From assembly GCA_026874595.1 (NCBI GenBank), contig CM049310.1:43343558-43407557 (forward strand): a DNA stretch of 64,000 nt. The letters run 5' to 3'. The position numbers were made by a program, and so were the translations under genes. This document shows positions 2,471 to 43,900 of the stretch, in pieces. The notes under the pieces are model-generated. The model was not told the origin of the DNA and made no database searches. It worked only from the letters and a program-made list of their open reading frames with translations. Positions within the stretch are counted from its first letter, which is position 1. Each line of letters starts with the position of its first letter. The stretch comes from Sipunculus nudus. Lineage: Eukaryota; Annelida; Sipuncula; Golfingiida; Sipunculidae.

Positions 2471-4283
2471 CTCTGGCCCCTGTTGATTGTTACATTGTAA
2501 TTTCACATAAAAGACACTGGCGCCACCTGGTTGTTATTACAGTTATGATAACCCTTGCATGCCTTCCTTCATCCAAATGAATGTTCAAATAAGCCAGGGA
2601 TATCTGTAAACAGAAATTGAATGATTTTTCTTACACATTTTTCCTTACATATTTATTGATCTACCATAGCTATATGGTTCATTGTCATTTAGCTCTTGTC
2701 ATTTTAATCAAGAATTAAACATTTATTTAATTTTTTTTATTGTAAGACAGTTGATTTGAAATGTCTTTTTGTCGGGACACACAACAAACACCTCTCTGTT
2801 GTTAATTTAAATAAATTTTACATTTGCAGATTTCTATTTGAAAGCATGTGGAAATGTTTATAGCAAAAAAAACATTTCCCTTCTCTTTCTGAAATTAAAA
2901 AAAATCTGTATACATCACATTATTAAAGATATCAAACTTGTGTTATAATCATTTTTAAAAGAACTTGAACAAATGTGTTTTAATACATGATTATTGTTTA
3001 ATGATAAATTGGTTTCATTGTCATATACTGCAGAAACTATGAAATAATGAAAACCAATATTTGATCTTCATATAACCAAACAAATCTGACTTATACGATA
3101 AGGTATAGTAGCAAACAAAAATAACAATGAAAATAAAAAGGGAAAAAGAGTATTATTATGCAGATAAATGGGAATTTATATGATACATTAGTGCTTTCTT
3201 GGTGCATGTTTCCCATATATTAAAAAACATGGCATATGTATTTATTATATGCATGAGGAACCAATGAAGTACCCCTAAAGAGACATTAATGTCAAATTTT
3301 ATAACTGACTGATTTAACAAGTAGGATGCCGATTAAATGTGAAATGAGATTGGGGGGGGGGGAAATAAAGTGAAGTTCTGGTTAGGATGCGAGTGAACAT
3401 AATCTTATTATATTTACCAGAATGTCTTTTGTGGGTTCTGTAAACTGCAACCTTTAAAAAAAATGTTTTCCATTCAAATGAACCTGTTTTAGCATGGTTC
3501 TTATCCTTTGTCCCTTTGGTTATCTATTTCATAGGTTTATTTGATAAGATCTTAAAACATTTCCATACCCAGGCATGGCTTCATTTTTGTCACTTTTACA
3601 AACATTTCATCCTCCTGATCCCAGACTGTAACTGTTTTTATCTGTACAGCATGTGATATAATTAATCTAGTCTTCCATAATGACTTTTGAACAGCAGTCC
3701 TGATTGAAAAAAATCCTTTCCCACACAGTCAGAAACGGGGTCACATCCAGTGGCATTACAATAACATACCTTATGGTTTCACTTTATTGTCAGTCCAACA
3801 TTTTCTTAAAAGGCTATTTCTTATGTAGGTTTATTTTAAGTCACACATCCAATAGCAGACCATGTTTTATGGCTCTTGGAAGATGATTCCAGTTAGAAAA
3901 TTGATATGTATGATATAATTCCCAGAAAAAGATACACATAGCATTGGAAGGATCTTGATCATGGTATATTCACCAACCAAATTATGACTCGTGACTTTGT
4001 TATTGATCACTTTGCAAGAGGTTACATGTGGAGAAAATTGCTAAAAGTAAAAATTAATCTACAAAAGTGAATAAGATTTTTTTTTTTAATTTTCAAAGGT
4101 TTAAATAATATATGCTTTTCCACAAGTAATAGGTTGAAGATATAAAATTGTCATTTGAATATTAATTGAATATGAAGAAGGAAAGAATGTATTTATAGAT
4201 ATCCCTGTCCTTAGGTTGCACTAGGTTAGAAAATGCACCATGTAACTAACCTTTCACCCTTGACCTCTGCACTTTGGCAACAG
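2471..4283. other. Intron, AT-rich, no features seen
   Basis: 3' part of the intron preceding the IIS3-S4 exons. Contains a short G run near 3351-3361 and homopolymer tracts only. Confidence 0.7.
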
Positions 4284-4396
4284 GTTATAGTGGGCAGCAT
4301 CTTTGAAGTGATATGGGGGGTTTTCCGGACGAAGGACTCCTTTGGTGTCAGTGTTCTTAGGGCCCTGCGCTTGCTGCGAATATTCAAGGTTACAAG
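4284..4396 (+). CDS. Cav2: Cav2 exon, IIS3-S4, alternative version a
   Basis: 113 nt, entering in phase 0 and leaving with two bases of a split Arg codon. It encodes 37 residues: the end of IIS3 ([11 protein letters not shown]), a short S3-S4 loop GVFRTKD, and the voltage sensor S4 ([14 protein letters not shown] plus R). The acceptor is ttggcaacag and the donor is aag|gtgaga. It has the same length, phase and S4 charges as the exon at 7618, so the two are alternatives for one position; either fits the next exon at 9017. The loop here is net positive, whereas the other version is net negative. Joining both would shift the frame and hit a stop within the second copy. Confidence 0.93.
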
Positions 4397-7300: not shown

Positions 7301-10300
7301 TCTGCTCATCTTCAAAAATATTATAACTCCTATCATTGATGGAAAATGGACTATGTACAGTATGAATCAGATATTTATGACAAGGCAGCTTTACATCCCA
7401 GACCAGCATTTTAAGATCCAAATTTTGTTATATTCATGGATCAGACAATATTTTTGTCCTGTGTTTTTACAACTCTGCTTCCACCATGGGTAAGGTACTC
7501 GGGACACAAACCAGTGGCTTTTGTTATGACCAGTGCTTATTTCAAGGTCTGCATCCTTGTGGTTCTCGTTGTCAGTGTGTTTGCTTTGCATTGTGGGTCG
7601 ATCTCTGTACTATGCAGGTTATTGTGGGAAGTGCCTTTGAAATCATCTGGGTGGAAACTATGAAAGACACAGACTTTGGTATTAGTGTCTTACGTGCCCT
7701 TCGTCTACTCAGAATATTTAAGGTCACAAGGTGAGGTGCATACAGTTAATTTTGTCTTGTTTGTAATAGTTTGAACTTAAACAAAAAATTTTAATTTTGC
7801 ACTATACCATACTTTCGGAACTGTTTGAAGTTAAAAATAAAACTGAGTAATGTTTATTTCCAACATTATTCAGGATGAGCCATCAGTGTTTTGTTTCACA
7901 AATGAGCATAGACTAATATTAATGATATGTTCAGTTTATTATATGAAGTTTATTAACGTATGAACTATTACAGACAATACTGTATTAATTCTTTATTTGC
8001 TTCCTGTTTGTGACAGCTTTTTCTTTCAGGTAATAACAATCATAAGAAACATCTAAATATATCCCTTTGTTTTAGATCTTATGGAATCCTTTTAGATTTT
8101 TGCTCAGTAATGTATTTTGAATGTATATATATATATTTGCAAATTAGAATGCCATAATTAAATCTTTAGTGTCTTTGATGTTTCTGTAATAATTCACATT
8201 TATAAAGTATAAGAAAGGAATATAATACACAACAAACAATTGTTTTCTCACCATTGTTTTAACAATTGATTCGCGGACTATGTCATCCAATGAATATATG
8301 AGGTGAGAAATTTGTGATGTCATATTGGAGGTTCATATTCATACCTTCTTGAAAGTTTGATTTATTTTGATTGACTATACTGACATTGTCAGTTTAGTCT
8401 TATCTGTTAATTTTGATTTAAAATTATATTTGTTAGCGGTTCATATATTATTTATGAAATGAAATGTTTTGAATATACAGGTCAAGTTCATGAATCTAGA
8501 GACATTTTTTCCAGAGTGGGGGAAGGATCCTTAACCTACATTGTATAACTGGCTCAGTTTTTTCAGAACCTACAAATCTGAGAATTATTAATAAATACAC
8601 CAAGCTTTAGTTTGGTGCATTTGCTGTTAAAAATTATTTAAGATTAACATATAAACTATTTCTTTTTCAAATAAGTTTTGCTGGCATTTTCTAAGTGGGA
8701 TTTTCAGTCATATGTGCATATGACCTGTTGTTCTGTAAAATTTCAGATTCCAATACCTATCTCACTTTAAACACTAAAAATAATTTATGATTATGAAAAA
8801 TATGCACGAGTTACTCTACTATCCCATGATTCAAATGCAACACTATGATGGAACTTTACTGACATATATAGCACACAGCAAACAAAAAACAAAACAAAAT
8901 ATGTGATCTTTGTAATATATGCATTATATCAATATCTACACCAAGGAGATAAATTTGTGAGCTAGGTCTGCATATTCACATATTCTCTGTGCTGATGATG
9001 TTCTTCTGATAATCAGGTACTGGTCATCGCTACGGAACTTGGTGGTGTCCTTACTCAACAGTGTGCGGTCCATCGTCAGCTTGTTGTTCCTGCTCTTCCT
9101 CTTCATCCTCATCTTTGCGTTGCTCGGGATGCAGCTGTTTGGAGGACAGTAAGTTACAGTCAACAGTTTTACTTTCAGGATGCTTAACCAATTTTGTGAA
9201 TCACCTCCAGTTTGTCATGACTGCTTCTTTGGTAGTATCTTAGTGCAGTACCATATTTTCCCACTAGATGTCAGCATCAGTGCATGTGGATTCTGATTGA
9301 CAAATTAAAGAAGATGTACAAACATTTAATACTTTCTTTTTCATATTTCATTTTCCAGTTTGGCACTTATGTGCTCTTTAATATTATTTAATTTCTGGAA
9401 AAAAATTATTTGTTTAATTAAATGGATTTTTTAAAATGGTAAACTCCATTTTCTAGACCTTTTTGGGCATAGACAAAATGTAAATGTTAGCAACTGTTTC
9501 TAATGCCACCCAGGTCATGAGCTAATTTCAGTCCTCTTGAGTTTGCCCAGTCTTATAAATTATCTCAAAGAGCAGTATACCCATAATTTTGAAATGGGAC
9601 CTGTGACATTGAGGTTTTTGTGTGTGCACAAATTTGAGGCACCCCTCCCCTACCCCCTTTCCCATATGAGCGTTTTTGAGAAACTGGGAGAAATTTAATA
9701 GAAATAAACCCTTCATGTGCAAAAAGGGCATGAGGATGCGGCACGAGAGTTCTCATTCTGGACAGCTTCCAGGCAGGAATCTTACCTGTGGAGAGAATTT
9801 GGTGGAAAGGGGACATGTATTGCCAAAGTTTAAAGAGGAATAACACTTTTTTTTACCACGCCCTGATCCTTAAATGATTGTAGGATGAATGTTAATACGA
9901 AACTTTATTGATATTTACATGATTTTGAAATGAGAATAACTCTTGACTAAATTATTACCCTTCTAAAAACTCAAGTTGTTGCGTTGAAAGTAACTGTTAT
10001 TTGACATCTTTCACCACTGAAAAAAACAGCCCTTGTAACTGAAGAAAAACAACATTAACACGTGGCTGCAGACACTCAGGTGAAAGTGAAAGCATTAACC
10101 TTGAGTAGATAGAGCGATGTAACTGATTGTGTTTCTTTGTGACACAGGTGGAACTTTGATGATGGCCGTCCCAGCAGTAACTTCGATTCCATATCCACAG
10201 CTCTACTCACAGTGTTTCAGGTGAGTCTGACAAGCTCTTCTCGCTGACATCGAGGATGAATGCAAACTGTCTTGTACAGTGTGTCATCACCATGGAAACA

Positions 10301-13300
10301 AACTCTTCTTCAGCAGTTTATTAATTTTTTTCTCATTTTCATTCAAATAAGAATATTAAGAAGTCAGCTTGAAATATGGCGTAAAGTTTTTTTATTGTCT
10401 TTATTGTTGTGTCATCTTTTAAGAATCATTTCCCCCTGCGGTGCTAAGATATGGTAAATGACAGTCAGCAGCAGGAGATTTAACATTAAGTGCTTTTTTA
10501 ACTGGAAATTTTAATCATCTGCCTTACAAGATACTTTAATCTTAAATCTTCACTCTTTTTATTTTTTTTCAAGATAATATAAATATATTAATAAAAATAT
10601 ATAATTATTAATGTTTTGACAAAAAAATAAGACTTTGCCATGAGGTATATATACCAGTAGATTTTATTTCATTTTGCTTTGAAACTGAATCATAATTGAG
10701 TCTATGTTTGTGTGATATGTACAGTTCCACCTTAGAAGTTCTGGTGCTCTTATTTAATACATTTTTGGGGTTGGGGGTGGGGGGTAGGTGGGGGAGGCAA
10801 TCAGTACAGTACACATTATAATGGTATTATTATTATAAATGGTATTATTACAGTGGCCTTTAAATTATTTTGTTTTTGGTCATGTTATATAGTTACTGGT
10901 ATAGGAAGAATAAAATGATTCAGTTTCAGTTTAAAAATAAAATAGTGTATTTTGTTTGTGTCATTAATTGTAAATTTATTTGATAAGAATTAAATATTAT
11001 ACATTTCTTTCATATTTTTTTTTTTTTTGGGGGGGGGGGGGAGGGCAATTCAGGTTTTTATTGTTAATACAAATATATTCCTATTCTTGAGGAAAAACCC
11101 TTGTAGGTGAAAAATACTACTTACACAAGCATAAAATAAGAAATGAACAATACATGCACCTTTGTTCAGTACAAGTTATTTTAATTTACATTATATTTAT
11201 CAATGGGAATTAATATCTTTCAGGATGTGGGGCATTTCTAGGGATGGGGGGTATTTCCTTATTGTAAAATAGGTGAAGGGGGTATTTGATAGAATGGGGA
11301 ATTCCATCTTAAGAGCACAAATGTTCAGAAAGGAACTGGCACAAATATTTTGAATATTAAGTGGGGATAAATTTCAAATGTTACAAGAGTATATGGGTCC
11401 AAAATAAGGAAGAACGTATATTTGGTTTCAAGGTTGTGTTTATATTTGAATTTTTCTGGTGGTCATTGTGGCAGTTGCTTGATTGGTGACAAAAGGCCAA
11501 TTAAGCAGGGTGGTGGCTGTTTTAAAAAATAATTAACGTTTCTGAAGATATTGAGATTATTTAGGGAATTTCCAGAAAATAAGAATCAAAGAGTTCACAT
11601 GATTTTGTTTAGTGGAATGTGGGGTTTTGGTAATTTTAGTGGCACCCATTTTAATTAAAACTAAACAATAGACAGTATATATTTTTCTTCACAGTAAAAA
11701 TTATTATGCCATTTTTTTGGTGTGTCTGAATACAGAACTCCTTATAGATATAAAAATGTTAATTGCATGGTATGGTTTTGGGGTTGTATGGTTTTGGGTT
11801 GTGTGGTTTTGGGGGTTGTGTGTGGTTTTTGGTGATGTGGTTTTGTGGTAATTTTGGGTGGTGTTTACTACGACTGGCTTCTCTGCTTTTTAAGATCCTT
11901 ACTGGTGAGGACTGGAATGAGGTTATGTATAACGGCATACGGTCACATGGTGGCATCGGTGGCGGCGGCATGTTCTACTCGCTTTATTTTATAATTCTTG
12001 TTTTATTTGGGAATTGTATCCTTTCATTGTGGGTAAATGGGGATAGAAACATGATTTTTTTTGGTAGAAGAAATAAAAGTCTTTTTTTGTCCTAATGACA
12101 ACCTGGTTTTCTTGATTTTCATATGTCATAGCCAGGTCAAAACCTCAGTAATAAAGTATAACATATATTTACTGTTGGCACATTCTTTTTTTTTTAAATT
12201 AACCATGTTTCATCATTTATACCTTCAGACACAGAAAGTTAATCTTATCATTAATTAAAATAATTATGAATATTTTGGCTTCCTTCATTACACAGGAACA
12301 TCCAATTTTCATGCCTTGGCAACATTTTCTTGCTCCTGCTAGTATAAAATTTTCATTTTTGAAATTATGCAAAAGTGTAAGTCAAGAAATCATTGAAAGC
12401 AGCTCAAAATCATTGAAAGCAGCTCAAAAATTTTCTTTGATATTATTAATTTATTATCTAATATTTTTAACATTAAACAGTTATGTTGTAGTTTTCTTAT
12501 GACAAGAAAGTCATTAGCAATATTTTGGTACTATTTCCTCAACATAAGCACATTTACACATGATAGTCATCAATAATTTTCTAAATACACTACGTGCAGT
12601 TGTGGTATAATATAATCCATGTTGTGTTGCGATTGATGTTGTGTTGTTTGAATTGTGTTCAGATTCTAACCGGAGAAGATTGGAATGAAGTCATGTATAA
12701 TGGCGTTCGCTCACAGGGCGGTGTCCCCAACGGCATGCCATACGCTATCTACTTTGTTGTGCTTGTGTTGTTTGGTAACTGTATCCTTGTGCAACTATTT
12801 TCTTTCGACGACACACAAGTATCACTTGGCTTAAGTACTTTTTGAACATGTATCTGATCATTTTGTCACCAAATCACATGTATTTGCATATTATGGTATT
12901 TTCCTCTTTACCTTTCTGCATGTCCAGAAATATTTGCTTTTATTAAACCACCAGGGGTGCTCATTGAAAATTGTGATGTTTTTTAAATGTAAAAAATATT
13001 GGAATTAAAGCAGGGAGTAACTATTTGACTTGGCTGTAACCCAAAACGGTTAATAAGTAAATTATTCAGTTTAATGTTTGAGAAAAAAAATCTTTTTTTT
13101 TATCACATCTATGCCTAGTTGCATAGTGGTCTCATAAATATTCCATATAAACATGAGAATTGAGCATAAGATTGGCTTACAAATCTATCACTGGTTCAAA
13201 AGTCCATTGAGTATCTCATGGGTGCTTTGACTCTTAAGTTTGCAAAACACTATCATCCCTTTCTAGAGTTAAATGCAATATTGTTGAAAAATGAAAAAAA

Positions 13301-13883
13301 AATATATTCATTTTTTACAGAATTATTGACAAATTTGAATGGTCACCCCTTGTTGACTGGAATGGACTATATTGATCATTGGGATATGCTTGAAATCTAA
13401 TAGAATGTTTGGTGTATTGAATATTAATCTGAATGCTTTAATTAAGTCTGATGCTGCATGGTAATGATAATCACTGGCATGGGCTTTCTTATTCTGGCAT
13501 GCATTTCTATTTTCGACAGGTTTTATGAAGGCACGCATGACAGATGGATGTATTTATTTCAGTGTAACTCTATTGTGCTTTGTTGCTTGAAATAAACATT
13601 TAAAGATATATATATAAAACTAATTTATTATACAACGAGAAGTTCAAATGATAGATAAAACTCAAAGCAGCTGCAAGGTTTTGTAATGTAAGTGTAAGCA
13701 TTCTTTTAAAATATTAAAAAAAAATAATCACAAGTTATTAACAACAAACAAATTTTAAATGAACAAATGCAAAGTCAATTTTGTTATGTATTCGAAATTT
13801 ATCATATCCAAAAATTGTTAATTTATGGTATGTAACCAGATATACTAAAGTAATTTATGAAAATAAACAACAGGAAAAATTAC

Positions 13884-13936
<53 letters not shown>

Positions 13937-16900
13937 TAAAAATTTTGCATGTAGCTGCATTACAATTTTTTTTATCTCAAATTAATTCTTAATTTTGTTC
14001 ATTAGTATTCTCTTAGAAAATCTTATACAGTATAACACAAAAAAAAAGGTCTTGATCCCTTAGACTGGTACTCTGTGCTTTTTACTGAGTCTGTTAAGGA
14101 TCGAAGCGGTACCCTCATCCAGTACTGCTGACCGGCCAACTCTTGCCGTGATTTCATCAGTGAGAGTCACAGCTCGTGGTCCTCCTGTACACTTGCTTCA
14201 TCATTGATGCTGCAGGTGGCAGTTGTCTTTGGGCTTTTGTTATAATAGTTGAGTTGAGAGTATAACTTATAAGGATGGAACCAGCCTATTGCAAAATCAA
14301 AACAGATGACAACTAGGCCAGTCTGTAGCATACACATGAGTACCAAGTTCCACAGTGAAATTTTCTGGTCTTTGCAGGTTTACAAGAACAGTAGAACCAA
14401 ACTAGCACAGGGTACCAATCTATTGATAACATATCTTTCAAGCATGCTGATTGGTCAGGATGCCTCATGCATGATGCATGACAATAGGAGAGGACCCAAC
14501 TTTTGAATTAAGGATGTAGAAAAAAGGAACAAATGTCAACCTTAATGTTATGGAAATATTTTTACCTTGAATGCTAAAAATCCAATAAATATTGCCTGAA
14601 ATTGCAAGATTTATGCCTGGCTATATGATTTGAATATATATTATTCTGGCTGATGTTTTGCCTGTATTTTACTACAGATTTGTAGATAAAATATGCTTTA
14701 TACTTTTTTGTTGATGAGATATAATTTTGAAAAAAAAAATGATGGATCTATGTATTATAAGCCCATAAAATGGATAGAAGTTCTTGCTGCATTATAAAGA
14801 TATACAAGAAAAGTATTAATTTCACATGAATGGTGATCTTTATAACTTAATAGTAGGCAGTTTCCTTTACATAATTAAATAATCTTTAACTTACCAAACT
14901 TTTTATTCATTGCTGCCATTTCTGTTTGTTGAGGAAGCTACCAAATAGGCTTAATTCAAGTAATGTTTTAACAAGAAGTAACCTGTGAAATAAGGAGAGT
15001 CAGCTCACAAAGATAACTGAGCAGAATCTATTTGATGAACCTATCTAGGGTGCATGTAACCAAGTCAGTAGAGGGTGATTATAAGAGTACTAAAATAATA
15101 TTATATATACTGTTAAAACTTATGTATAAGTTGAAAATTTGTTCCTCATAATAGTTTGGAAAGCAGGGGTTCATTTAAGTAAGGTTTCAGGTTTTAAATG
15201 ATGAAATTGGTGTTAGAAGTTTTATTTGGAGTATAAGTGTGGATATTCAGGCTTTCCATCTTGCTTTAATATTCATGATAAAATTTTAAGTATTTTGTAG
15301 GCCTTCAAAGCACTTGAATTGAGCTGGTATTGAAAATATTAAGGAAAATGTCTCAAATATTATCCTAATTATGGCTGAATATGGTAAAACAAAAGGAGCA
15401 GGCATGCATTGATCTCTTAACTATTAAATACCACTTTTATTTTTATCATTGTAACATTCTAGACTTGTGTATGAAAATAGTGAATTTAAGAAAGAAGGGA
15501 AATAGGGGAGACAGCTGAAGTGGTAAATCATGCAGAGGAGGTGAGCACTGCTAGAACTTCCAAATATTTGTCCTGAAAAACACATTGAAAAGACCTTTAA
15601 CTTGAAACTTATAAAAGATAATTGGAACCCTGGTATTCTAGAACTAGCACCAAAGAAAGGAATATACTAGTGTATAACCAGGCAATTGTTCAAATTAATA
15701 ATTTGTAAACTAGATTAGAAATTACTGTATCTGATTTATATAAGAAAAAACTATTGGAGAAATCATAGTGGTACCCTGGCTTTAATATTTCAAAAGTATA
15801 AAAATAATTAAAATCTAATTGTATGCTTCAGTGGGTGGAATCTTGGTAAAAATTATTATTATTAAGATATATTAATAATAATAATATCACTGCATTGTTT
15901 GGGAAGTCTGGTGAATATTTCATCACAGCGATTTGTTATTAAATTACTATTTGGTCATTCATGCACTAGTGCAAAAGCATGCATTTAGATAATTTCTACA
16001 AATGTTGCATCTTTAATTTAAATATACCATGAATATCTTGAATTTAAGGTGCTAACAAATTTGAACAAGAATGCATGTTATTAAAACAGGTTGTATTTGG
16101 CAGATTTTTCAATACCTTGCCTCTTTATTTGATTTTAATTGTGCCAGCAGTTATTCCATTCGAATATTACATTTTCTAATAAAAAAAATGAAGATTTGCA
16201 GTCGTTTTACCCTAGTGAAAAGTCCTGTGAAGTTTAAGATCTTCAAAGGACCTGATTTTTTCCAGAATTTGCAAACACTTTTGAAATTTTATTTGTTGAC
16301 TTTTTAGCCCTCAGCCCCTAGGCTGATGGGCTATTGTCGTCACCCAAGCTGTCCGTCCGTCCGTCCGTCCGGCGTCCGTTAACTTTTACCTTGTGAGCGG
16401 GATATCTTGAAAAGGATTCACCATCAGAATTTTATTTCCTCGGTAAAGATGTATATCGACAAAATCTCGGTCAAGTTCGAAGATGGGTGACCTTGACCTA
16501 TTTTTCTACATTTTAGAGCTGATTATAGAAAAACACTTAGATGCTTATTACTCAGGAACCATTTGGTGGATTTTCACAAAACTTACTATGATTATTAGGA
16601 CTGATGGTTTGTACCTGCTTCACAAGTTTGGTGGCGCCACCTACAATTTCTGATTTTTAATGAATTTTTATCGGATTTTTCAACTTTGGGCTTGTGAGCG
16701 GGATATCTCTAAAAGGATTCACTGTAGGAATTTTATTTTTTCGGTGAAGATGTATATTGACAAAATCTCGGTCAAGTTCGAAGATGGGTGACCTTGACCT
16801 ATTTTCTACGTTTTAGAGCTGATTATAGAAAAAACATTTAGAAGCTTATATCTCAGAAAAAAACATTGGGTGGATTTTCACAATTTTTACTATGATCATA

Positions 16901-19900
16901 GGGACTGATGGTCTGTAACTGCTGCACAAGTTTGGGGGCGCCACCTGCAATTTCTGATTTATAATGAATTTTCGTTGGATTTTTCAACTTTGGCCTTGTG
17001 AGCGGGATATCTCCAAAAGGATTCACAAGAGGAATTTTATTTCTTTGGTGAAGACGTATATCTACAAAATCTCGGTCAAGTTCGAAGATGGGTGACCTTG
17101 ACCTACTTTTCAAGGTCACAGAGCTTATAATAGAATAAAACTTAGAAGCTTATTTTTCAGGAAGCATTTGGTGGATTGTTATGAATCATGGTACATACCT
17201 CTGCATTTTAAATTTATAACTGAGACATGTACAGATATACATCCATGTGAGAACAGATATTTAGTACTTGTTACTGTTACCACCTCTAAACACTGTTGTT
17301 TTGGCTGAGGGCTTTTGTCAGCTTCTGCTGATATTCTAGTTTTTAATTCCTTAATTATTGTTTTCCTTCATAATCAAATCAGATATAAATTGAAAATGGA
17401 AATATTTATGCAATACAGCTTTATGATTTGAGTTCAGGACCGAACACACCATCAAGAAATAGATATTTAAGATGAGCTACTTATTATTTACTTAATTGCA
17501 AGTTTTGATGATGAAAGATAAGTCCATTACTGCCTAGACACCTACCCAGGTAAGCACTTTATCAAATAATATGTAGTGAGTTCCTTAACTTTAAATAAGG
17601 TCTTAAAAGGTATTTTAATCTTTTGGAATTGTATGAACCTTATTAGAACTAACTGTATTTCATTTTGATATGGGTCATTGTAGGTTAGCATGATCCCAAG
17701 ACCAATGGAGCTTTAATTTGCAAAAAAGTATCAATTACTTGTTTAAGTGTCCGAAAAATCTGCCAGATACTTAACCGGGTATACAGTAATTATGACCACA
17801 TGAAATAAGGATATAATCAAGACCAAATCAAAAAAGGATGAAATAGATTTTATGTATTTATGCATATAAGAAGGTAGTGATATAAGGCACTTGAGTGGGA
17901 AGTACTTGTTTTGTGAGGTGCAGATCCATTTAAGGAAGGAAACGTTTTCAACTTTTAATCTTTTACAGCTTAACATCATCTGCTGGTTTGCCCTCTCTTA
18001 GAGGTACTTCCATTGCTGTTTATAGGTGACACTTAAATGTGTATAGTTAAAATGAAATACAATGTGAGATACTATATACTATAACCCAGGGGTTACTGTT
18101 TGAACCAAATCAACCAAACCCTTAACTAAGATCAGACACTCTGCTGAATGTGTTCTTGGCTATCGCTGTTGACAACTTGGCAAACGCACAAGAACTTACT
18201 GCAGCTGAAGAAGAGGCAGAAGAAGAAGATGAAAAGGTGATTAAATTTAAACACTTGATTGTATGTAAATTAATAACTGAGTGATGAGCAAAATGTGTCC
18301 CATGAAGTTGTATGGGTTGCTATTGTAACTACCAGCCTGTCATTTATTTTATTTATATAAAGTATCATGTCATGTTTGTGTTTTTGTGTTTCCTGTCATG
18401 CGTATTTGCAGTGTCCATAATTAGTACTGGTTTAAATGGTTTTGCAAGAGAAATGCTGAAATCAATAATGAAAACAGCCATAGTGAAAACATTGTTCTTC
18501 TCAGTGTAAATATTTAACTCTATTATGTTTTCACATTTCACTGCTGTAGAAAACCAAGTGTACTAAATTTTAGCTCATGACCTTGACCTGTTGGGTTTGA
18601 CCTTGACCTTGTAGTAGAATGTGAAATAAGACCATCTTACCTGTACAATTGGAGTATAATCATGACCTTGAATTTGTCACGATTAGAACTAGCTGTGCTG
18701 TGTGACATTTGGTCTACCTGTAGTTCATTAGTTGTGTGTTAATGGTACTCTTTTTGTTCATATTCCCCGCATGCTTCCTGATTGGTTGGTTAATTCTCAG
18801 CGCAAGGAAGAATTGAAGAGTGAGGCAGGCCACCAGTTTGGCGATCAGGTCAAATTTTAAGTTAAAAAAGCTAAAGTTTTTATGTCATATACTCTGAGAA
18901 GACACAACTTGGTTCATTCAGTATTTTTCTCACAGTTCTAAAACAGTGTTCATCTGTTTCACTATTCATATTCCTGCTGTTTCAGAGAACTGATGGCTGA
19001 CTGGATTCTCCACCACACATCTGTTCTGCTCTCTGAATACTTCTGTTACTGTCTGGCAGGTTGTTCTTAAGTAATACAAGCTGGACAGGCTTGACTTGCA
19101 CTGTAGAAAAAAAAAACAACAAAATTATGTCCTTTTTTATCAAGTGCTCTAACCAGCAATAAGTTATTGATGGTAGGTGAGACTGACTGGTAATGATAGG
19201 AACCTGTATGGGAAAATTTCTGTTGAGGACAAATACTGGGGATATAACTTAATGCAGTGCATAATTATAATAATGGATAGTGATGGGTATTGGTAAATTG
19301 TGATAAATTCAAGAGACACATCTAGACAACACAACTCATGGAGAAATTTGCAAATGATTCATGTTAAATAAGGTAAACAGAGCTTTAAAACTTCTGCAAT
19401 ATTTGCTGAAAGGCTAAAATAGGCAAATGGTCTATATACTGTTTATTTAATAAAACAAAAACTGCATTTTCTTTGAGCAATCATGTATAAGCACTAGAAC
19501 TATCCTTCAAGACCACGTGAGCAAGGGTTTGGAAATATGGACCATTATGGCAGAAGTTATATGAATGATGTCCTTTTGTTTCTTGATAGACTAAGGGGTG
19601 TGAAGCCAGTGACCTGCTATTAATTGAAAAGTCATCCACCTGTATGAATATAAGAAGTACAGTGAAAGTACATTGGAAATTGGAATAGATCAAAATTTAT
19701 ATTTAAACATCCAAGGTGTGACTGAGTGTGATGACTCAAATCAGACACTGAGATTGTGATGACTTATTACACCTTTTACTCATATTTTAAATTCCAGCCG
19801 TAAATGATAGGAAAATAAATTATATAAAAAGCTTTTGTATACCTCAAGCAATCATCTGAAGTGTCAGAGGACATGAGAGTTAATTGTGCAATTTCTTTGA

Positions 19901-34900: not shown

Positions 34901-37900
34901 CAACAATGCATTTTATGTGTTTATTGAATTACTTTCTCTGTTAGAATCCTGAGCTATTAGGAGTGGATTGATATTTTTTATGCTGCCACCTACATGTTTG
35001 TATGTTGTGAACTTTATATGCTGTTAATATTTTTTAACTAAACTCACTTTCAGCCAGGCTGACTTTCAGCCACAATGAGCAGTGATTGGTCTTTGTCTGT
35101 TAACCTTCAATTAGTCTATTCAGATTATCAGCTTCTGAAGGGAATTTTTTAAACGGTGCAGGGGGCAGAATTCTGTAGGTTAATATCTGGATATACCTTG
35201 GTGTGGTAGCTCCATTGTAAAATCGAAATAAGTTCATAAATGCCTTAATTTTCTCAATCATTCACAAACATTTTCAAGTAATACTTTTAAGATGGTCTGG
35301 GAAAGAACATTTTGTGATCAAAATGATCACAAGGTTCAGATTTACAGTGACTGCACAGATTAGCCTAAAAGTAATGGCTACGTTTAGCCCTTAATAAAAA
35401 AAAGGCCTATGTTTAAAGCAGTGGGCTGTGAATTTCCATTTTACTTAAACTTACAAAATATTTTCGCTGAGTGTCATGACCCATGGGCCAGTTTTTAATT
35501 ACTTGCTAAATATTCTTTTGGTCATTTTTGGTTTACATTTAGTAAAACTTATATAGTTGTTTTTAATATATAAACAGGATTTACCCAATACAATGGATAT
35601 TTTGTTTGTTTATGTGATTCTCCATGTCATATTTTTATTGGAATTTTTTTTAATTGGATATTAAAATTATCGAGCTATCAAATTTATAAAGTTTTTTGTA
35701 TCAATTTTGTGAAGAACTTATTTATTAACAGAAGAAAATTACAGTAAAGTACTACAGTAAATATTCATTTGGACTGATATTTTTCTTTGAATGATGAAAC
35801 ACTTAAATCTCCTTTGTTAATTCAGTCTAATAGTCTCCAGTGCTAGTCTATAATATTAAATTTGACACCTTTTGCCAGTCATGAACGGGTGTTTTTTTTT
35901 TGCTTTTATTAATGAGAATCTGGTTTGATTACTATAGCAGTTTCCTTAAGATGATGGTATGTTATCTGATCGTCACTCATATTGTGACAATCACTATGAT
36001 GGGCTGTTCCAATTTTTATACCACCAGTGTAAAGGCTCACTACATGTTTCTCTGTGCAATTTTGAACATGCTGGAATGAGGAACGTGTTGTCTATATACA
36101 TATGTATATATTTTTAGATTTGTCAAAGTATACATGCATATATTGCTTCACAGTTTTTTTAGCCTTAAAGTGTTAGCATCAATTTTCTTCAGTAACCTTC
36201 ACACATTTTTTTTCAGCTGGTAGATATTTTTGTTCAAATTTTTTTTGCCAAAATACCTAAAATTGAGTGCTTCAAAAATTTTCTCTCTCTGTTTGAATGC
36301 AATCTTCTGGGAACATTTTGAACATTCTGAAGGAATAAAAAAAACCCTTTTCTTACACACTAAAAGTTATCTTCATTCTGAGAGAAGATTGTTCTCTATA
36401 TTGGATTAAAAACTGCAATTGAAGTATCTATATGAATATGTAAATTATATACACCGTATACAAAATATTTGAACTAAATTTTATCATTTAGATGAGAAGA
36501 GAGACCATTTGATGCAACATGTCAATCATTTATATGTATGATGTGATTGTTTTGGTTGATCTTAAAGAAACCACTATTTTTGGCTTTTCCTGATGTTACA
36601 GTATCACGGTATGGAAGATCCATTCATAGCTGTGCTGGGAAACTTAAACACTGCCTTCACTATACTCTTTACGATAGAATGTATTCTCAAGTTAATGGCT
36701 TTTGGCATCCGGGTAAGCAACCTTGAACTCGGATGGTAGAGTATTTTGGTTACAGGCTTTCACTTTGAAACACTTTTTTACTATTATTATTATCATCATT
36801 ATTATAATTTTTTTTACCCTCTGCTTATTCAATGGAGCCGGTCGGCACCCGTGTATTGTGTCCAGTCTAAATGCCAGAGATTTCTGTTAGTTTCACGGAA
36901 TGTTATTGGCACCATCTTTCCGACCCAAGTTTTGCATGGATTAATGTGCTTGCTGGAACACATGATTTTAGTAAATAAAAATTGAGAAACTGTTATGATG
37001 CGGTTCCAGCCATGTTATTGTGCATGCTACAAGCACAGAGAAACATACAAAATGTGGTCAGTCTGGCATTGATTAGAGCCAAGCCCTGTCTTGACCCATT
37101 GAATAACAGAGACACCCTCGGTTCAAAAGAGTGTAGATGGCTTGATTCTAGCTCTTTGGAACTAGGTTGTTGGTTGTTTTTTAGGCTACAAACTGATCTG
37201 ATTATATTGATTTACATTGACACATGTGGGGAAATGTTTGGAGGTTAGCTTGTACTTGTGGCTCCATTGAGTGCTTGACTGTGCACATCTGAGAATGATC
37301 AGACCAACCCAGTTCTCATCAGAATTCTCAACTCTAGCAATCTGACATCAGTGTAGCTACTGATTGTCAGAGACTCTCATCACTGAAAACATAAAACATT
37401 ACAATAAAGAATCAAAAGAAACATTACAATAAGTATCAGTAATATATCGTCTTTGTGACAGTTTTATTTTAATGCATTATGTATAAAAACAGCATAAAAG
37501 ATTGCTACTGTAGACCTAGATTAGATTAAATATTCAGTCAAATATAATTATTGTATTTTACCAATAAATATTCAAGAATTTATATTCATTGGAAAGCAAA
37601 GTGGAAGCAGAATTTTGAATTGACACTTGTGGCATCAAGTTTTCATACATTTTAAATGTCAAATTTAATGGTCTAAGTGGTTCACAAAGATTTAAGTACC
37701 AATAATAACAACTTCCCATAATTAGCTCAGCTGACTATAAGTCAACTGAGCTATAGAGATGGTCCTTTGTCGTCCGTTAAACTGGCACTTTTTGAAACTG
37801 TTTGACATACAAATCTGAAATTTGGCATACAGTTAGATGTCCCAAAAATCTCCTACCATTTTGAAAATTGGGTCAATATGACATCATTCCTTTGAGATAT

Positions 37901-40900
37901 TAAGGAAAAACCTCAATTATCTATTAAAAAAACATTTTCACACTTCAAGACTGCCTAATATCAAAACCACTTATCTGTTTTTAATTATATATTTAATATA
38001 AATGTTCCTCTATATAATTCCTATTAACATACCTGAAATTAGGTCAGTATTATGTAATTTCATGAAGTTACGGGCCCCAACATAATGCACTTTGCAGGGC
38101 ATTCTTGGCAGGCAGCAACCTCTTGGCTGGTTACAACTGGCTCAAGGTGTCAAATTCCTCCCCTTTAGTAGTTGTTTTTTGGCCAAAAATATTGAATAAA
38201 CAATAATTGAATAAATAAGTATTGGTTTATAAAAAGAACTTTAAGAAAAATCATTGGAAAAGGAATTTGCTAGTTAACGAACAAAATTACTGATGTTGTG
38301 TGGATCTTGTATTGATGGTCCCAGATGTATTCTAAATGACACCATGTATTCACCTTTGTGTATATTTCATTTCAATTTTAATATAAAATAAAAAATTAAA
38401 TAAAATTGTTCGTTACTGTTTGTGATTATATGAAGCAAAAATAATGATAAATAAGGATGTCATTGATTTTAGTAAATTAATCTAAATTTCCAGGTCTTTT
38501 CTAAGTGTTTCAGTTAGTTAATTTATATTTATTGATAAAACTTTATAAATAATAAAATTAAATATGTCAAAAATTAAAATATGACTCCAGCAAGTACTCA
38601 TTAAAGAAGTCAATATATTTGACTACTGACATTAAGACTCATGGCTGAATCACTTGTTACATGATACTATGTAAATAATCAGATTTTTATGACTGATTCC
38701 TTTATTTCAGTAAAAAAATTAAACATGCCCAGCTTCAGATTGCTCCTTGTAAAATTTATTGGGTTATTTTTACACATGTATTAGTTTCATAGCTGAAATT
38801 ACTTTTCATTTTTCATCTGACACAAATGTGATAAAAAAAAATCAGATCCTAGACAAGTTCTTATTATGATGTCTATAATGTTAATAATTGTTATCAGACT
38901 CTTACTGCGTTAAGTATGTTGATTGATGTGAAAGTATTCAAAAGTAAATACAATATTTTTATATATTTAATATAAATTAATGCCATAAATCCAGGGACTT
39001 ACGATCTTTATTTAAATTTGTGAAATTTGTATATCCTGGATTCCCAACCATTTTTGTTTGACTTCAACTGAATATATACTCATGAGATAAAATTTACATG
39101 ATAAAACTGACAAAATTGTGTAAACTTGCAGGATCAGGCCAAGTCAAAACTTGTGTGACAATAGCACTCCATTTAAAAATGTAAATATTATAAATGACAT
39201 CAGTACTCTTCCCTATATTCCAGGATTTTATCCAAATCTTTCATAACTTCAGTTCATCACCATCTCAGAATACTGCTTATTTTACCACACAAAACTAGCA
39301 TTTGCCTACCCCCTCTTCCAAATCATATTTTGTGATCATATATAACAGCTGAGCTCCATGACCCATGGGTCCCTTATTTATACATTTGTAAATGCAATTT
39401 ATTTTAATGGTGGAATAAGTAAATCTTTGCATTATAAAAAAGTTTGAATTATTTAAGGTGTGTGAATTTACAATAGTTTTTGATCTAATGAAGATACTAC
39501 TGTAATACATTTTGCAATTCTAGTTTTTGAAGAATATGTTCAAACTGCTTAATAAAATGATTCCGGCTGGGGGTGTTTCACTTTAAACATAGTGGGGGCA
39601 TAAGCTTATCATCAAGAATGTGTGGATTGATGGTTACTTGCATTTTAAATATATATATAAATATATCGAAAGAAATAAATTTTGTTCTTTAACTTTTACT
39701 GGGTCATGAAAAAGTCAGAAAATTGTTTTACTCAGTGAGGGGATGAAAATTGTTTATTTCAATCTGTGGTCTGGTCATTCTTGGATTGCCTCATTCCCAC
39801 TCTTCCCCCGGTGGTCGGGTCCTGCGGTATCCTTGATCTCATTGCAGGGTTTTTGTCTGTTTTTGTTTCTAGTATTACACCCCTGAAAAAACCGACGGCT
39901 ACAGATTGTACTGCATTACATTAAGCTACCTGAACGTGGCTTTCACAGTCCTCTTCTCCATAGAGTGTGTCCTCAAGATTCTCGCTTTTGGACCAAAGGT
40001 TTGCATACACCAGTCCTAGACTTTCTCTGTTTTGCGAATCTGTTTTGCGTGTGTGCTTGTGGGTGTGTACATACTTGAGATTGTGTGCTCGGTGTCTGTT
40101 ATGTACAGAGTTCTCTTGTGGCCAGTTGTCTGACTGATATATTAATTGTACAGATTAATACCCATCTGTTTTTGTTGATGGTTTTACAAATCTTTTTTTA
40201 AGATTGTGTGAATCAAAATTAATATTGAAAATGTTTAAAATATATAAAATGGCCAGTGATGATTAAATTTAATTCTGAATTTAGTATATATCACAGAAAG
40301 TATTGATATTGCCTGCAAGAATGTCTTTATGTGCAAAATTTCTGGATCTTTGCCTGCCGAAATTTCACTGTGTGCAAAATTTCTGGATCTGTGCCTTCCA
40401 GAATATCTTTGTGTGCAAAATTTCTGGATCTGTACCTGCCAAAATATCTTTGTGTGCAAAATTTCTGGATCTGTGCCTGTCAGAATGCCTTTGTGTGCAA
40501 AATTTCTGGATCTGTGCCTGCCAGAATATTTTTGGGTGCAAAATTTCTGGATCTGTGCCTGTCTGAATGTCTTTGTGTGAAAAATGTGTGGATCTTTGCC
40601 TGCAGGAATGTCTTAGTGTGTAAAATGTCTGGATCTTTGCCTGCCAGAAAATCTTTGTGTGCAAAATTTCTGGATCTGTGCCTGCCAGAATATCTGTGTG
40701 TGCAAAATTTCTGGATCAATGCCTCTCAAAATGTCTTTGTGTGTAAAATTTCAGGATCATTGCCTGTCAGAATGTCTGTTGATGCAAAATATGTGGATCT
40801 GTGCCTGCCAGAATGTCATTGTGGGCAAAACTTCTGGATCATCTTTGCCTGCCAGAATGTTTTTGTGTGCAAAATTTATGGATCTTTGCCTGCCAGAATG

Positions 40901-43900
40901 TCTTTATCGCAATAATTTTGGATCTTTGCCTGACAGAATATCTTTATTAAATGTTTGTGGACCTGTGCCAGCCAAAATGTTGTGTGCAAAATTTCTGAAT
41001 CATCATTGCTGCCAGAATGCCTATTAGTGCAAAATTAGTGGATCTGTCAGACCAGAATGTCAGTGTGTGCAAACGTTCAGGATCTGTGCCTGCCAGAATT
41101 TCATTGTGTGCAAAATTTCAGGATCTGTCAGACCAGAATGTCTTTTTGTGTCAAATGTGTGGTTCTGTGCCTGCCAGAATGTATTTGTGTTCAAAATAAC
41201 TGGATTTTCCAAATTATAATTTATATTGAAAATGTTTTAAGTATTTTAAATGGCCTGTGATAATTAAATTTAATTCAAGATTTAGAATATATCACAAGAA
41301 GTATTGATCTTTGCCTGCCAAATGTTTTTGTGTACATAATTTATTGATCTTTTCCTACCAGAATTAGGGCTGAAACGGGTACAAATTTTTGGACTCGAGT
41401 ACCCGATAGGCATTACCCGACTCGGACGTGAGTACTCATTACCATGGCCACGCTGTAAAGATAAAACGGACATCTGTTTACCGATGCAAAATATGCATAT
41501 ATTTGACTTCGTGACGATTTAACTTTATCCAAATGAAGAAACAGATATATGTCATAACAAGACCTTTGTTAATTTGACTAGCATATATTTAGAGCCATAT
41601 GCCAGGCTGCGATGATGAATAAATAGACCTACAGACTGCCCGCAAATTTGCAGTATATTTAAATGTGCATGTAAATACACGGGTACTCGAGTCCAAATTT
41701 TGGACTTGAGTACTCGGTAAGTATTACCCGGACTCGAGTACTCCTTTCAGCCCTAACCAGAATGCAACATTTGTGGATCTGTGCGTGCCAGAATGTATTT
41801 TTGTGCAAAATTTGTGGATCTGTGCCTGTCAGAATAACTTTTGTATTGAAACATCTGGATCTGTACCAGTTTCAGAGATATCTGGGTATGTTAACATCTA
41901 GATCTGTACCTGTCACAGAATTCTTTGTATGTTTACATCTTGATCTGTTCCTGTCAGGGAATTCTTGGTATGTTAAAGTCTGGATTTCGCCTGTGAGAGA
42001 GTACTAGGTATATGAAAAGTGTGGATTGGTATTTGAATCTGTAAAAATGACTGGATTAGTGCCTGTCAGAAGATATCTTGGAGTAAATGTGTGGATCAGA
42101 GCTTGTCAGACATGACTTTTGTTTAAAAATATCTGGCTAAGTCTCTGCCAGAGTGTGTCTTCTTGCCTGTGTAAAAATGCCTGTCAGAGGATGCCTTATG
42201 CGTATATTATAAAAAGTCTGGATGAGTGTATGTCAGATTGTGTCTTCATGTGTGAATTAGTCTGGATCAACGGGGATCACACTGAATTAAGGTAGTATGG
42301 ATGAACTGATCACTTGTAAATGAAATCTTGAATATTTGCATATTTGTTCATGATAATGGGTGTGTTTTGTGGAGGTTGACTGTGTCTAACTGTGATGTCC
42401 CAGGATATGCTTAATTGTACATTGGCATTCCACACAACATTATATAAGAACTAGCATAACAGTATCTATAAGAGCAAACCAGCTGAATATTTTATTCCCA
42501 TCCATAATCACTCATATTATACTATTTATAAAACTATACAGGCTTGGTGTTTGTGGATTCTGCTTGCTTCAGTCTTACTCAAAACTTGTGATCTATCAAA
42601 TCATTTACTGTATATTTTTGTATTTTTTTCATTCATTGCATCTCAGCAACTGTTTTTGGCCTTCTTTTTTCTTGCTTATGTGCAGTATAGTTTGTAGTAC
42701 AGTGTCACCAATCTCTCCTCTTCTAGAGTCTTACTTTCCCTCTGCACATTGTTTATCTATGTATATTTAACCTTTTTTATCAATTGTATAACATGTATGG
42801 CACCTTATCTCATCTCTTGGTCATGACTTGCATGTATGTATAAATGTTGATTTATACGATAATTTTAAAAAGTATTATCTTATGCATGCTGTACAAATCT
42901 AGTTCCCTCCAGTACTGGTTACGAAAGAAAAATCTGTTATGTTTGTAAATACTCCTGGTAACATCTGTTTAATATTTTTAAAGGCTTCATAAAGTTTGCA
43001 TATCTTTACACTTTAGTCACGTAGTTAGAAAATTAACAAATTTAATTATTTTCAAAATTGGGACTGGGAAATGTTTTATGGGAATGAGGAACAAATATCA
43101 GCATTACTGCCACATTTGCTGCATTTTAAAGCAGGCTTGCTCTGATAAGTTGTGTTTATTTATCTTTAAAAGAGTAAAAATCTCATTTAAAATATCGCTG
43201 TTAAATCAAAGAAAACTTGTACTGCTGTTAATAAAGAAAAATTTATGCTCCATATAAAATTGGTTTAAATGTAATTTTTACTGTAGAAAATATATATTCT
43301 GAGTAAGATATATGATGTATTCTGTCAAAGAAAAAAGACTTTATTGTGCTTGTAGATATGAAAGAATATCCCCTCATGGAATTTATTTTTGTGGTCCGCT
43401 AATTTAGGATGATTTACTGTTAATGCTGACTTGCTTTGCATGATATTGACGTTGATATGTCAATGTTTTTGTTTCACAATGTTAAGGTCTTACACTGATG
43501 TTCTGGCTTAATCTCAGTAATTCTTAAATATCACAATCATCAATATAATTTCAACACTTGACACATGTTTTCTTTAATCAATCATCTTGTGGTACATATC
43601 CACAGACTTAGCATACAGCTGCATACTAAATGTAAACAGAGGTACCACTTTGAGTGGTCTTGCGGCATTAAAATTGGGTCTTTTAACAAGGGGTCTTGAA
43701 GACATCCATGCAGAGCCAAGAAACTGCAACAGTGATCTGTAATTATTTGGCTAAAAGTAGTTGGTATTTGGCTAAAAGTAGTTGGTAATGTTAATTTTAG
43801 ATTATGAGAAATTATGCCCCACCAAGCTGACCTCTTCTGGACAGGATTTTAGTTTATATGCAGGGCCTGGACAGTCCAGGGGTAAAATGTATGGCTCTCT

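What the first reader, a model, noticed from the sequence alone, without database searches (positions are those of the whole stretch)
11895..18236. Alternative domain II pore exons kept exclusive by U12/U2 splice-site incompatibility
Both pore exons (11895-12015, 12663-12780) have U2-like acceptors but U12-type donors (GTATCCTTTC, GTATCCTTGT), and the shared next exon has a U12 branch site CCTTAAC 10-11 nt before its AG. A U12 donor cannot pair with a U2 acceptor, so the two exons cannot be joined; as backup, joining would give a stop after nine codons. Minor-class introns at conserved positions in sodium and calcium channel genes, and U2/U12 incompatibility as an exclusivity device in JNK-type kinase genes, are known. 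I do not recall this arrangement described for a Cav2 selectivity-filter exon.
Basis: partly seen in the sequence, partly recalled or inferred. Interest (0 to 1): 0.9.

Follow-up and report, generated by a model that had tools for sequence, protein, structure and literature searches.

The report
Calcium-channel pore exons split between spliceosomes
An invertebrate calcium-channel gene carries two alternative versions of one pore exon, and their splice signals belong to two different splicing machines in such a way that a finished message should hold exactly one of them; the trick is known from another gene family but appears here at the pore of a nerve-type calcium channel.

Summary
The window holds part of a Cav2 gene from a lophotrochozoan, probably an annelid. 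Exons A (11895-12015) and B (12663-12780) are homologous versions of domain II pore/upper S6. Both have U2-type acceptors and U12-type donors; the shared next exon (18136) follows a U12 branch core, CCTTAAC. On this strand 5 of 3803 GT sites match the U12 donor at 8 of 9 or better, and two are these exon ends; 8 of 3323 AGs have a branch core so placed. Neither exon ends in AG, as expected of true U12 donors. Silent codon changes indicate selection on both exons. The logic is stronger than reported: the upstream U2 donor cannot use the U12 acceptor either, so skipping both is barred too; both errors give early stops. But incompatibility does not choose the exon: P-A plus B-C would be a dead end, so a selector must exist. 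The topology is that described for JNK genes, hence a new member of a known kind, at a position that I did not find in print. Both exons encode the same selectivity filter. No RNA and no second genome was available.

The parts
10148..10220 (+). Exon P: domain II S5-P loop ([24 protein letters not shown]), U2-type donor CAG|GTGAGTCTG
   Evidence: in frame; donor matches U2 consensus 9 of 9, U12 3 of 9
11895..12015 (+). Alternative pore exon A, 121 nt: [41 protein letters not shown]2-type acceptor (pyrimidine 0.92 at -15..-4, no CCTTRAC)
   Evidence: with exon C it matches Cav2.2 (7mix) residues 659-728
12016..12025 (+). U12-type donor of exon A, GTATCCTTTC, preceded by TT, not AG
   Evidence: 9 of 9 to RTATCCTTT; U2 match 4 of 9
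12663..12780 (+). Alternative pore exon B, 118 nt: [40 protein letters not shown]2-type acceptor (pyrimidine 0.58 at -15..-4, no CCTTRAC)
   Evidence: with exon C its best solved relative is Cav2.3 (7xlq) residues 653-721
12781..12790 (+). U12-type donor of exon B, GTATCCTTGT, preceded by CT, not AG
   Evidence: 8 of 9 to RTATCCTTT; U2 match 4 of 9
12016..12662 (+). Hybrid interval between A and B: U12 donor, U2 acceptor, predicted unspliceable
   Evidence: inference from the two site classes
18120..18126 (+). U12-type branch site core CCTTAAC, branch A at 18125, 11 nt before the exon
   Evidence: 8 of 3323 AGs of the window have CCTTRAC at 9-15 nt
18136..18236 (+). Shared exon C: rest of IIS6 and start of the II-III loop, U12-type acceptor, U2-type donor AAG|GTGATTAAA (8 of 9)
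36602..36712 (+). Comparison pair in the same gene: alternative IVS2 exon a (111 nt), U2-type sites throughout
   Evidence: TM2 of repeat IV is an either/or choice in Aplysia too (exon 33a/33b, PMC10657410)
39873..39998 (+). Comparison pair: alternative IVS2 exon b (126 nt), U2-type sites throughout
4284..4396 (+). Comparison pair: alternative IIS3-S4 exon a (113 nt), U2-type donor; its upstream partner lies outside the window and CCTTGAC stands 21 nt before its acceptor
7618..7730 (+). Comparison pair: alternative IIS3-S4 exon b (113 nt), U2-type donor

Best explanation
This is a tandem-duplicated, mutually exclusive pore exon of a Cav2 calcium-channel gene, lying at the border between a U2-type intron (upstream) and a U12-type intron (downstream). 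Each copy is entered by the major spliceosome and left by the minor one. Allowed joints are P-A, P-B, A-C and B-C; A-B (U12 donor to U2 acceptor) and P-C (U2 donor to U12 acceptor) mix classes and are barred, so a finished message should carry exactly one copy. If either wrong joint is made, a stop follows within nine codons. Which copy is used must be decided by something else, most simply at the two competing U2 acceptors, helped or hindered by U11/U12 binding at each exon's donor (exon definition). Exon A has the stronger signals on both sides and is predicted to be the default, exon B the regulated one. The two proteins share the selectivity filter and differ in the P2-S6 outer loop and upper IIS6. 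Shown here: exons, sites, frames, signs of selection on both copies. Inferred: U12 dependence, exclusivity in RNA, the default, the effect on the channel.
For: Both exons splice in frame between P and C. Donors 9 of 9 and 8 of 9 to the U12 consensus, 4 of 9 to U2; 2 of the 5 such sites among 3803 GT. Exon ends TT and CT; no validated GT-AG U12 intron in PMC10853781 was preceded by AG (passages). Branch core 11 nt upstream of exon C, 8 of 3323 AGs. No U2-like donor of 7 of 9 or better from 20 nt into either exon to 300 nt past its end. A and B: 29 of 39 aligned residues identical, 17 of those 29 with another codon, 24 of 36 changes at third positions; the first 14 codons have 9 changes, all silent, against 0 of 400000 neutral simulations that kept the protein. 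9 of 13 fourfold sites differ, and corresponding flanks have no match better than E 0.025, not in register, while GTATCCTT follows both exons. A-B gives YSNRRRLE-stop, P-C gives TLC-stop. [quoted passage not shown]
Against: No RNA. No second genome with both copies: in the 304 proteins fetched (302 with a readable pore segment) none has more than 20 of 26 residues of B's variable part. The full branch consensus is met at 7 of 9 only, and the poor pyrimidine tract is not unique. Another alternative pair of the same gene, IVS2, has U2-type sites throughout and lengths divisible by three, so this gene can handle such a pair without the device. Minor-spliceosome genes of this organism could not be looked for (genome search gave no answer).
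Confidence: 0.78

Rival explanations
1. Exclusivity is enforced mainly by trans-acting splicing regulators and nonsense-mediated decay, as for ordinary exclusive exons; the U12 intron is an inherited feature on which the exon happened to duplicate, and incompatibility is a by-product.
For: Minor introns are general in human Cav alpha-1 genes (PMC6865273, PMC8767276, passages). The IVS2 pair of this gene has U2-type sites and lengths divisible by three, so if it is exclusive some regulator must act there. The dead-end P-A plus B-C shows that incompatibility alone cannot coordinate the choice.
Against: Whatever its origin, the class mismatch would still bar both wrong joints. This reading overlaps with the best explanation rather than excluding it.
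Confidence: 0.3
2. The downstream intron is spliced by the U2 spliceosome, or by both; the GTATCCTT donors are U12-like by chance.
For: Some U12-type introns are spliced by both machines (PMC10853781, passages); the branch match is 7 of 9.
Against: U2 match of both donors is 4 of 9 against 6-9 of 9 for the other 17; exon ends lack AG; both copies have GTATCCTT although 9 of 13 fourfold sites differ.
Confidence: 0.06
3. One of the two exons is unused or dying.
For: B was not seen in the 304 related proteins fetched, and its acceptor and donor are the weaker ones.
Against: B is open, its splice sites are intact, and the silent bias of the A-B changes shows constraint.
Confidence: 0.07
4. Competing RNA structures (docking and selector sites) make the exons exclusive.
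For: Known for other exclusive exons (recalled; PMC5740500 discusses a potential docker/selector case, passage).
Against: Duplex energies between about 300-nt flanks of A or B and regions after P or before C do not beat shuffles (8 comparisons, 40 shuffles each, z from -0.8 to 1.5). One genome only, so covariation is untested.
Confidence: 0.03

Closest known systems
JNK-family alternative exons with a hybrid U12-donor/U2-acceptor intron (PMC3584512, passages)
   Same: Same order: upstream U2-type intron, hybrid interval with U12 donor and U2 acceptor between the two exons, downstream U12-type intron; mutually exclusive use.
   Different: Vertebrate kinase genes there, Cav2 pore here; JNK isoforms are observed in RNA, this is sequence only.
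Human exclusive-exon clusters with U2/U12 incompatibility, 5 of 629 (PMC5740500, passages)
   Same: Class mismatch as exclusivity device, found by donor consensus.
   Different: Which five genes was not seen (appendix not held), so a human Cav case is not excluded by what I read.
NALCN exons 15a/15b (PMC3557258, passages)
   Same: Tandem exclusive exons over the same stretch, pore helices to the start of S6 of domain II, in lophotrochozoans among others.
   Different: 15a/15b change the filter residue E to K; here the filter is identical. U12 sites of exon 15 are not mentioned in the passages I saw.
Aplysia CaV2 exons 33a/33b (PMC10657410, passages)
   Same: Same channel gene; 33a/33b code for TM2 of repeat IV, where this window has its own IVS2 pair.
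   Different: Of eight splice choices one is a plain either/or pair, which I take to be 33a/33b; no domain II pore pair is named in the passages seen.
LCav3 exons 12a/12b of Lymnaea (PMC9694082, abstract in listing; PMC10120453, passages)
   Same: Alternative exons in the domain II pore module of an invertebrate Cav channel.
   Different: They cover S5-P1, upstream of the filter, and change ion selectivity.

Membership tests
U12-type (minor) intron | 5' splice site RTATCCTTT | tested here: met
   9 of 9 and 8 of 9
U12-type (minor) intron | Branch site TTCCTTRAC shortly before the 3' site | tested here: met
   core CCTTAAC exact, A 11 nt before the exon; full motif 7 of 9
U12-type (minor) intron | No AG at -2/-1 of a GT-AG donor (PMC10853781) | tested here: met
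   TT and CT
U12-type (minor) intron | No strong polypyrimidine tract at the 3' site | tested here: inconclusive
   0.50 at -15..-4, tied lowest of 19; at -25..-4 one acceptor is lower
U12-type (minor) intron | Splicing depends on U11/U12/U6atac | not testable with these tools
   needs RNA from the organism
U2/U12-incompatible exclusive exon pair (JNK type) | Two alternative exons, each with U2 acceptor and U12 donor | tested here: met
U2/U12-incompatible exclusive exon pair (JNK type) | Upstream exon with U2 donor, downstream exon with U12 acceptor | tested here: met
   donor at 10220 9 of 9 to U2; acceptor at 18136 with CCTTAAC
U2/U12-incompatible exclusive exon pair (JNK type) | Messages with one exon only | not testable with these tools
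   no RNA data
Cav2 calcium-channel alpha-1 gene | Translated exons match Cav2 better than Cav1, Cav3 or NALCN, with glutamate at the domain II filter | tested here: met
   7mix, 8x90, 7xlq are the three best of 54 and of 56 solved sequences; TGEDW in both exons
NALCN-type selectivity switch by alternative pore exon | The two exons differ at the filter residue | tested here: not met
   first 14 residues [14 protein letters not shown] identical

The most novel reading that the evidence does not exclude
A presynaptic-type calcium channel whose pore isoform is gated by an obligatory 'exactly one' splice logic: the fast major spliceosome commits to exon A or B, and the slow minor intron then acts as checkpoint, so that the isoform ratio follows U11/U12 activity at two donors of unequal strength. 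If both copies exist in related phyla, this would be a standing use of the minor spliceosome to switch a channel pore.
Probability: 0.25. Interest if true: 0.8.

Novelty: new member of a known kind. Interest (0 to 1): 0.62.

Why it matters
Alternative splicing at U12 introns is described as almost entirely absent, with at least three observed cases of exclusive use of U12 and U2 sites (PMC3584512, passages). Here it sits on the pore of the channel type that drives transmitter release, with a U2/U2 pair (IVS2) in the same gene as built-in control. Exclusive exons in Cav genes do leak: a Cav1.2 message with both exons 21 and 22 was found in rodents (PMC5059693, abstract in the listing; the site class of those exons I did not check). 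The pair here should not leak, so it makes a direct test of how far site incompatibility, rather than regulators, keeps exons exclusive.

Tried and rejected
Considered and rejected: (a) a pair with different selectivity, because the filter is identical; (b) exclusivity by short distance, because 647 nt separate A and B; (c) a nearby U2 donor used instead, none of 7 of 9 or better in the stretch scanned; (d) docking/selector structures, no signal; (e) Rfam families in the window, none at gathering score. Left open: a JNK-like device at the IIS3-S4 pair, suggested by CCTTGAC 21 nt before exon a; both donors of that pair are U2-type, exon b has no such core, and the upstream donor lies outside the window. 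Also left open: where the second minor intron of mammalian Cav genes (Cacna1c intron 13, PMC8767276) falls in the protein; two searches gave no exon-to-domain data, so I cannot say whether this U12 intron is ancestral. In one search, 229 of 304 segments score closer to B than to A and 74 closer to A; two of the three searches that built the set were run with isoform B and exon lengths differ, so I draw from that split only that B looks like an ordinary Cav2 pore. Flank comparison also shows a 553-base perfect match, which is the overlap of the two windows taken between A and B, not a repeat.
Full report
What the locus is. The + strand of the window encodes a Cav2 channel from IIS3-S4 (4284) to IVS5 (about 62424). 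Nineteen exons were delimited by splice sites and reading frame; five of domain II and ten of domains III-IV were joined for each isoform and read without a stop. The II-III loop exons were not fully modelled, and the IVS5 stretch [23 protein letters not shown] was only seen in passing. With exon C, A and B match Cav2.1, Cav2.2 and Cav2.3 structures ahead of Cav1 and Cav3. In a tree of the constant domain III-IV part with 26 relatives the window groups with three Helobdella sequences (support 85/84, not a starred fork); its highest identity is 80%, to the annelid Owenia. I take it as lophotrochozoan, probably annelid.

The observation. Exons A (11895-12015) and B (12663-12780) are homologous, in the same phase, and end with ATT|GTATCCTTTC and ACT|GTATCCTTGT. 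Exon C begins at 18136 after CCTTAAC (18120-18126). Among 19 donors these two are the only U12-like ones (9 of 9 and 8 of 9; the other 17 at most 6), and they fit U2 worst (4 of 9; others 6-9). Chance expectations: 5 of 3803 GT sites on this strand reach 8 of 9, two of which are these; 8 of 3323 AGs have CCTTRAC 9-15 nt upstream. Less decisive: the nine-base branch consensus is met at 7 of 9, a level that 7.4% of AGs reach within 8-30 nt, and a perfect [AG]TATCCTTT is expected 1.2 times per 64 kb on one strand. In PMC10853781 (passages) no validated GT-AG U12 intron was preceded by AG; here the exons end in TT and CT.

Both exons look real. A and B share 29 of 39 aligned residues; 17 of the 29 use another codon; changes fall 9, 3 and 24 on codon positions 1, 2 and 3. 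The first 14 codons differ 9 times, always silently; 0 of 400000 neutral simulations kept the protein. Fourfold sites differ at 9 of 13, and corresponding flanks show nothing better than E 0.025, out of register, while GTATCCTT follows both. The duplication is therefore probably old, and both copies with both U12 donors have been kept.

Logic. With P for 10148-10220, U2-to-U2 joints are P-A and P-B, U12-to-U12 joints A-C and B-C. A-B and P-C mix classes. The finding named the first; the second means that skipping is barred as well, so the layout enforces exactly one exon. Both errors would also be dead: A-B reads YSNRRRLE-stop, P-C reads TLC-stop. The weakness is coordination: if P joins A while B joins C, the interval 12016-12662 has a U12 donor and a U2 acceptor, stays in, and ends translation 26 codons on. 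The incompatibility is thus a fail-safe, and a selector has to act. Exon A has the better acceptor (pyrimidine 0.92 against 0.58) and the better donor (9 against 8 of 9), so I predict A as default. Exon definition between U12-type and U2-type sites is described in PMC3584512 (passages), which offers a route by which U11/U12 at a donor could influence the choice of the U2 acceptor. This part is inference.

What the exons change. The first 14 residues ([14 protein letters not shown]) are identical; differences lie in the outer P2-S6 loop ([10 protein letters not shown] against RSQGGVPNG) and upper IIS6. So this is not the calcium/sodium switch of NALCN exons 15a/15b, although it covers the same stretch (PMC3557258, passages). 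An effect on outer-pore ligands or gating is a guess from position.

Comparison pairs in the same gene. The IVS2 pair (36602-36712, 39873-39998; 111 and 126 nt) has U2-type sites throughout, and joining both would keep the frame. The IIS3-S4 pair (4284-4396, 7618-7730; 113 nt each) has U2-type donors; its upstream donor is outside the window and exon a has CCTTGAC 21 nt before its acceptor, so its class is not settled. That either pair is spliced exclusively is assumed from homology of the copies. An alternative choice at IVS2 is known from Aplysia (33a/33b; PMC10657410, passages), and short and long IVS2 forms occur among other lophotrochozoan proteins.

Relation to what is known. The site order equals that described for JNK genes (PMC3584512). 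In human, 5 of 629 exclusive clusters were called U2/U12-incompatible (PMC5740500); the list was not seen. Minor introns are general in human Cav alpha-1 genes (PMC6865273, PMC8767276), and one in IS1 is shared by Cav and Nav genes (PMC6259924). The Aplysia passages name no pore pair. For Drosophila cacophony PMC12370356 names two pairs, IS4 and I-II, while PMC9741552 counts three tandem events in that gene and ten in fly and human Cav genes together, all in different exons, without naming them all in the passages I saw; so I cannot exclude that one of them is this exon. Ten searches of the paper library were allowed; nine bore on the question and one on minor introns in lophotrochozoans. I saw no report of a U12-bounded pore pair in Cav2, but the library lacks most subscription journals, I saw passages of 14 papers (a fifteenth, PMC5748662, held none of my terms), and three papers and 59 could not be opened. 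Three protein searches listed the best 120 each of 5011, 7987 and 1724 matches, 304 different proteins in all; none carries B's variable part at more than 20 of 26 residues, A's at most 23 of 27. Records are clustered at 90% identity, so isoforms of one species may be hidden.

Verdict. A confirmed example of U2/U12 incompatibility at a new place, stronger in logic than reported (exactly one), weaker in what it explains (it does not choose). RNA is the missing proof.

Noticed in passing
4284-4396 and 7618-7730: A second tandem pair in the same Cav2 gene: two IIS3-S4 exons with nearly the same S4 ([14 protein letters not shown] in both) but different S3-S4 linkers. Not named among the splice choices of Aplysia Cav2 in the passages I saw.
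   Followed up: partly
36602-36712 and 39873-39998: A third pair, two IVS2 exons of 111 and 126 nt; joining both would keep the frame. By short local matches exon a is nearest to the nemertean Tubulanus, exon b to the nemertean Lineus and to flatworms, so the pair may be older than these phyla.
   Followed up: partly
P0206 (Timema bartmani, predicted protein): Four near-identical copies of the domain II pore stretch in a row in one predicted protein; perhaps a gene-model or assembly artefact, perhaps tandem pore exons in an insect.
   Followed up: no
16381-17177: Three tandem copies, about 300 nt apart and 74-85% like the first over 192 nt, inside the U12 intron; CCTTGAC at 16491, 16792 and 17096 lies in them.
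   Followed up: no
4258-4264: CCTTGAC 21 nt before the acceptor of IIS3-S4 exon a, a possible U12 branch site whose donor would lie outside the window.
   Followed up: partly
40263-41257: A long repetitive stretch that reads as repeats such as [11 protein letters not shown] in several frames.
   Followed up: no
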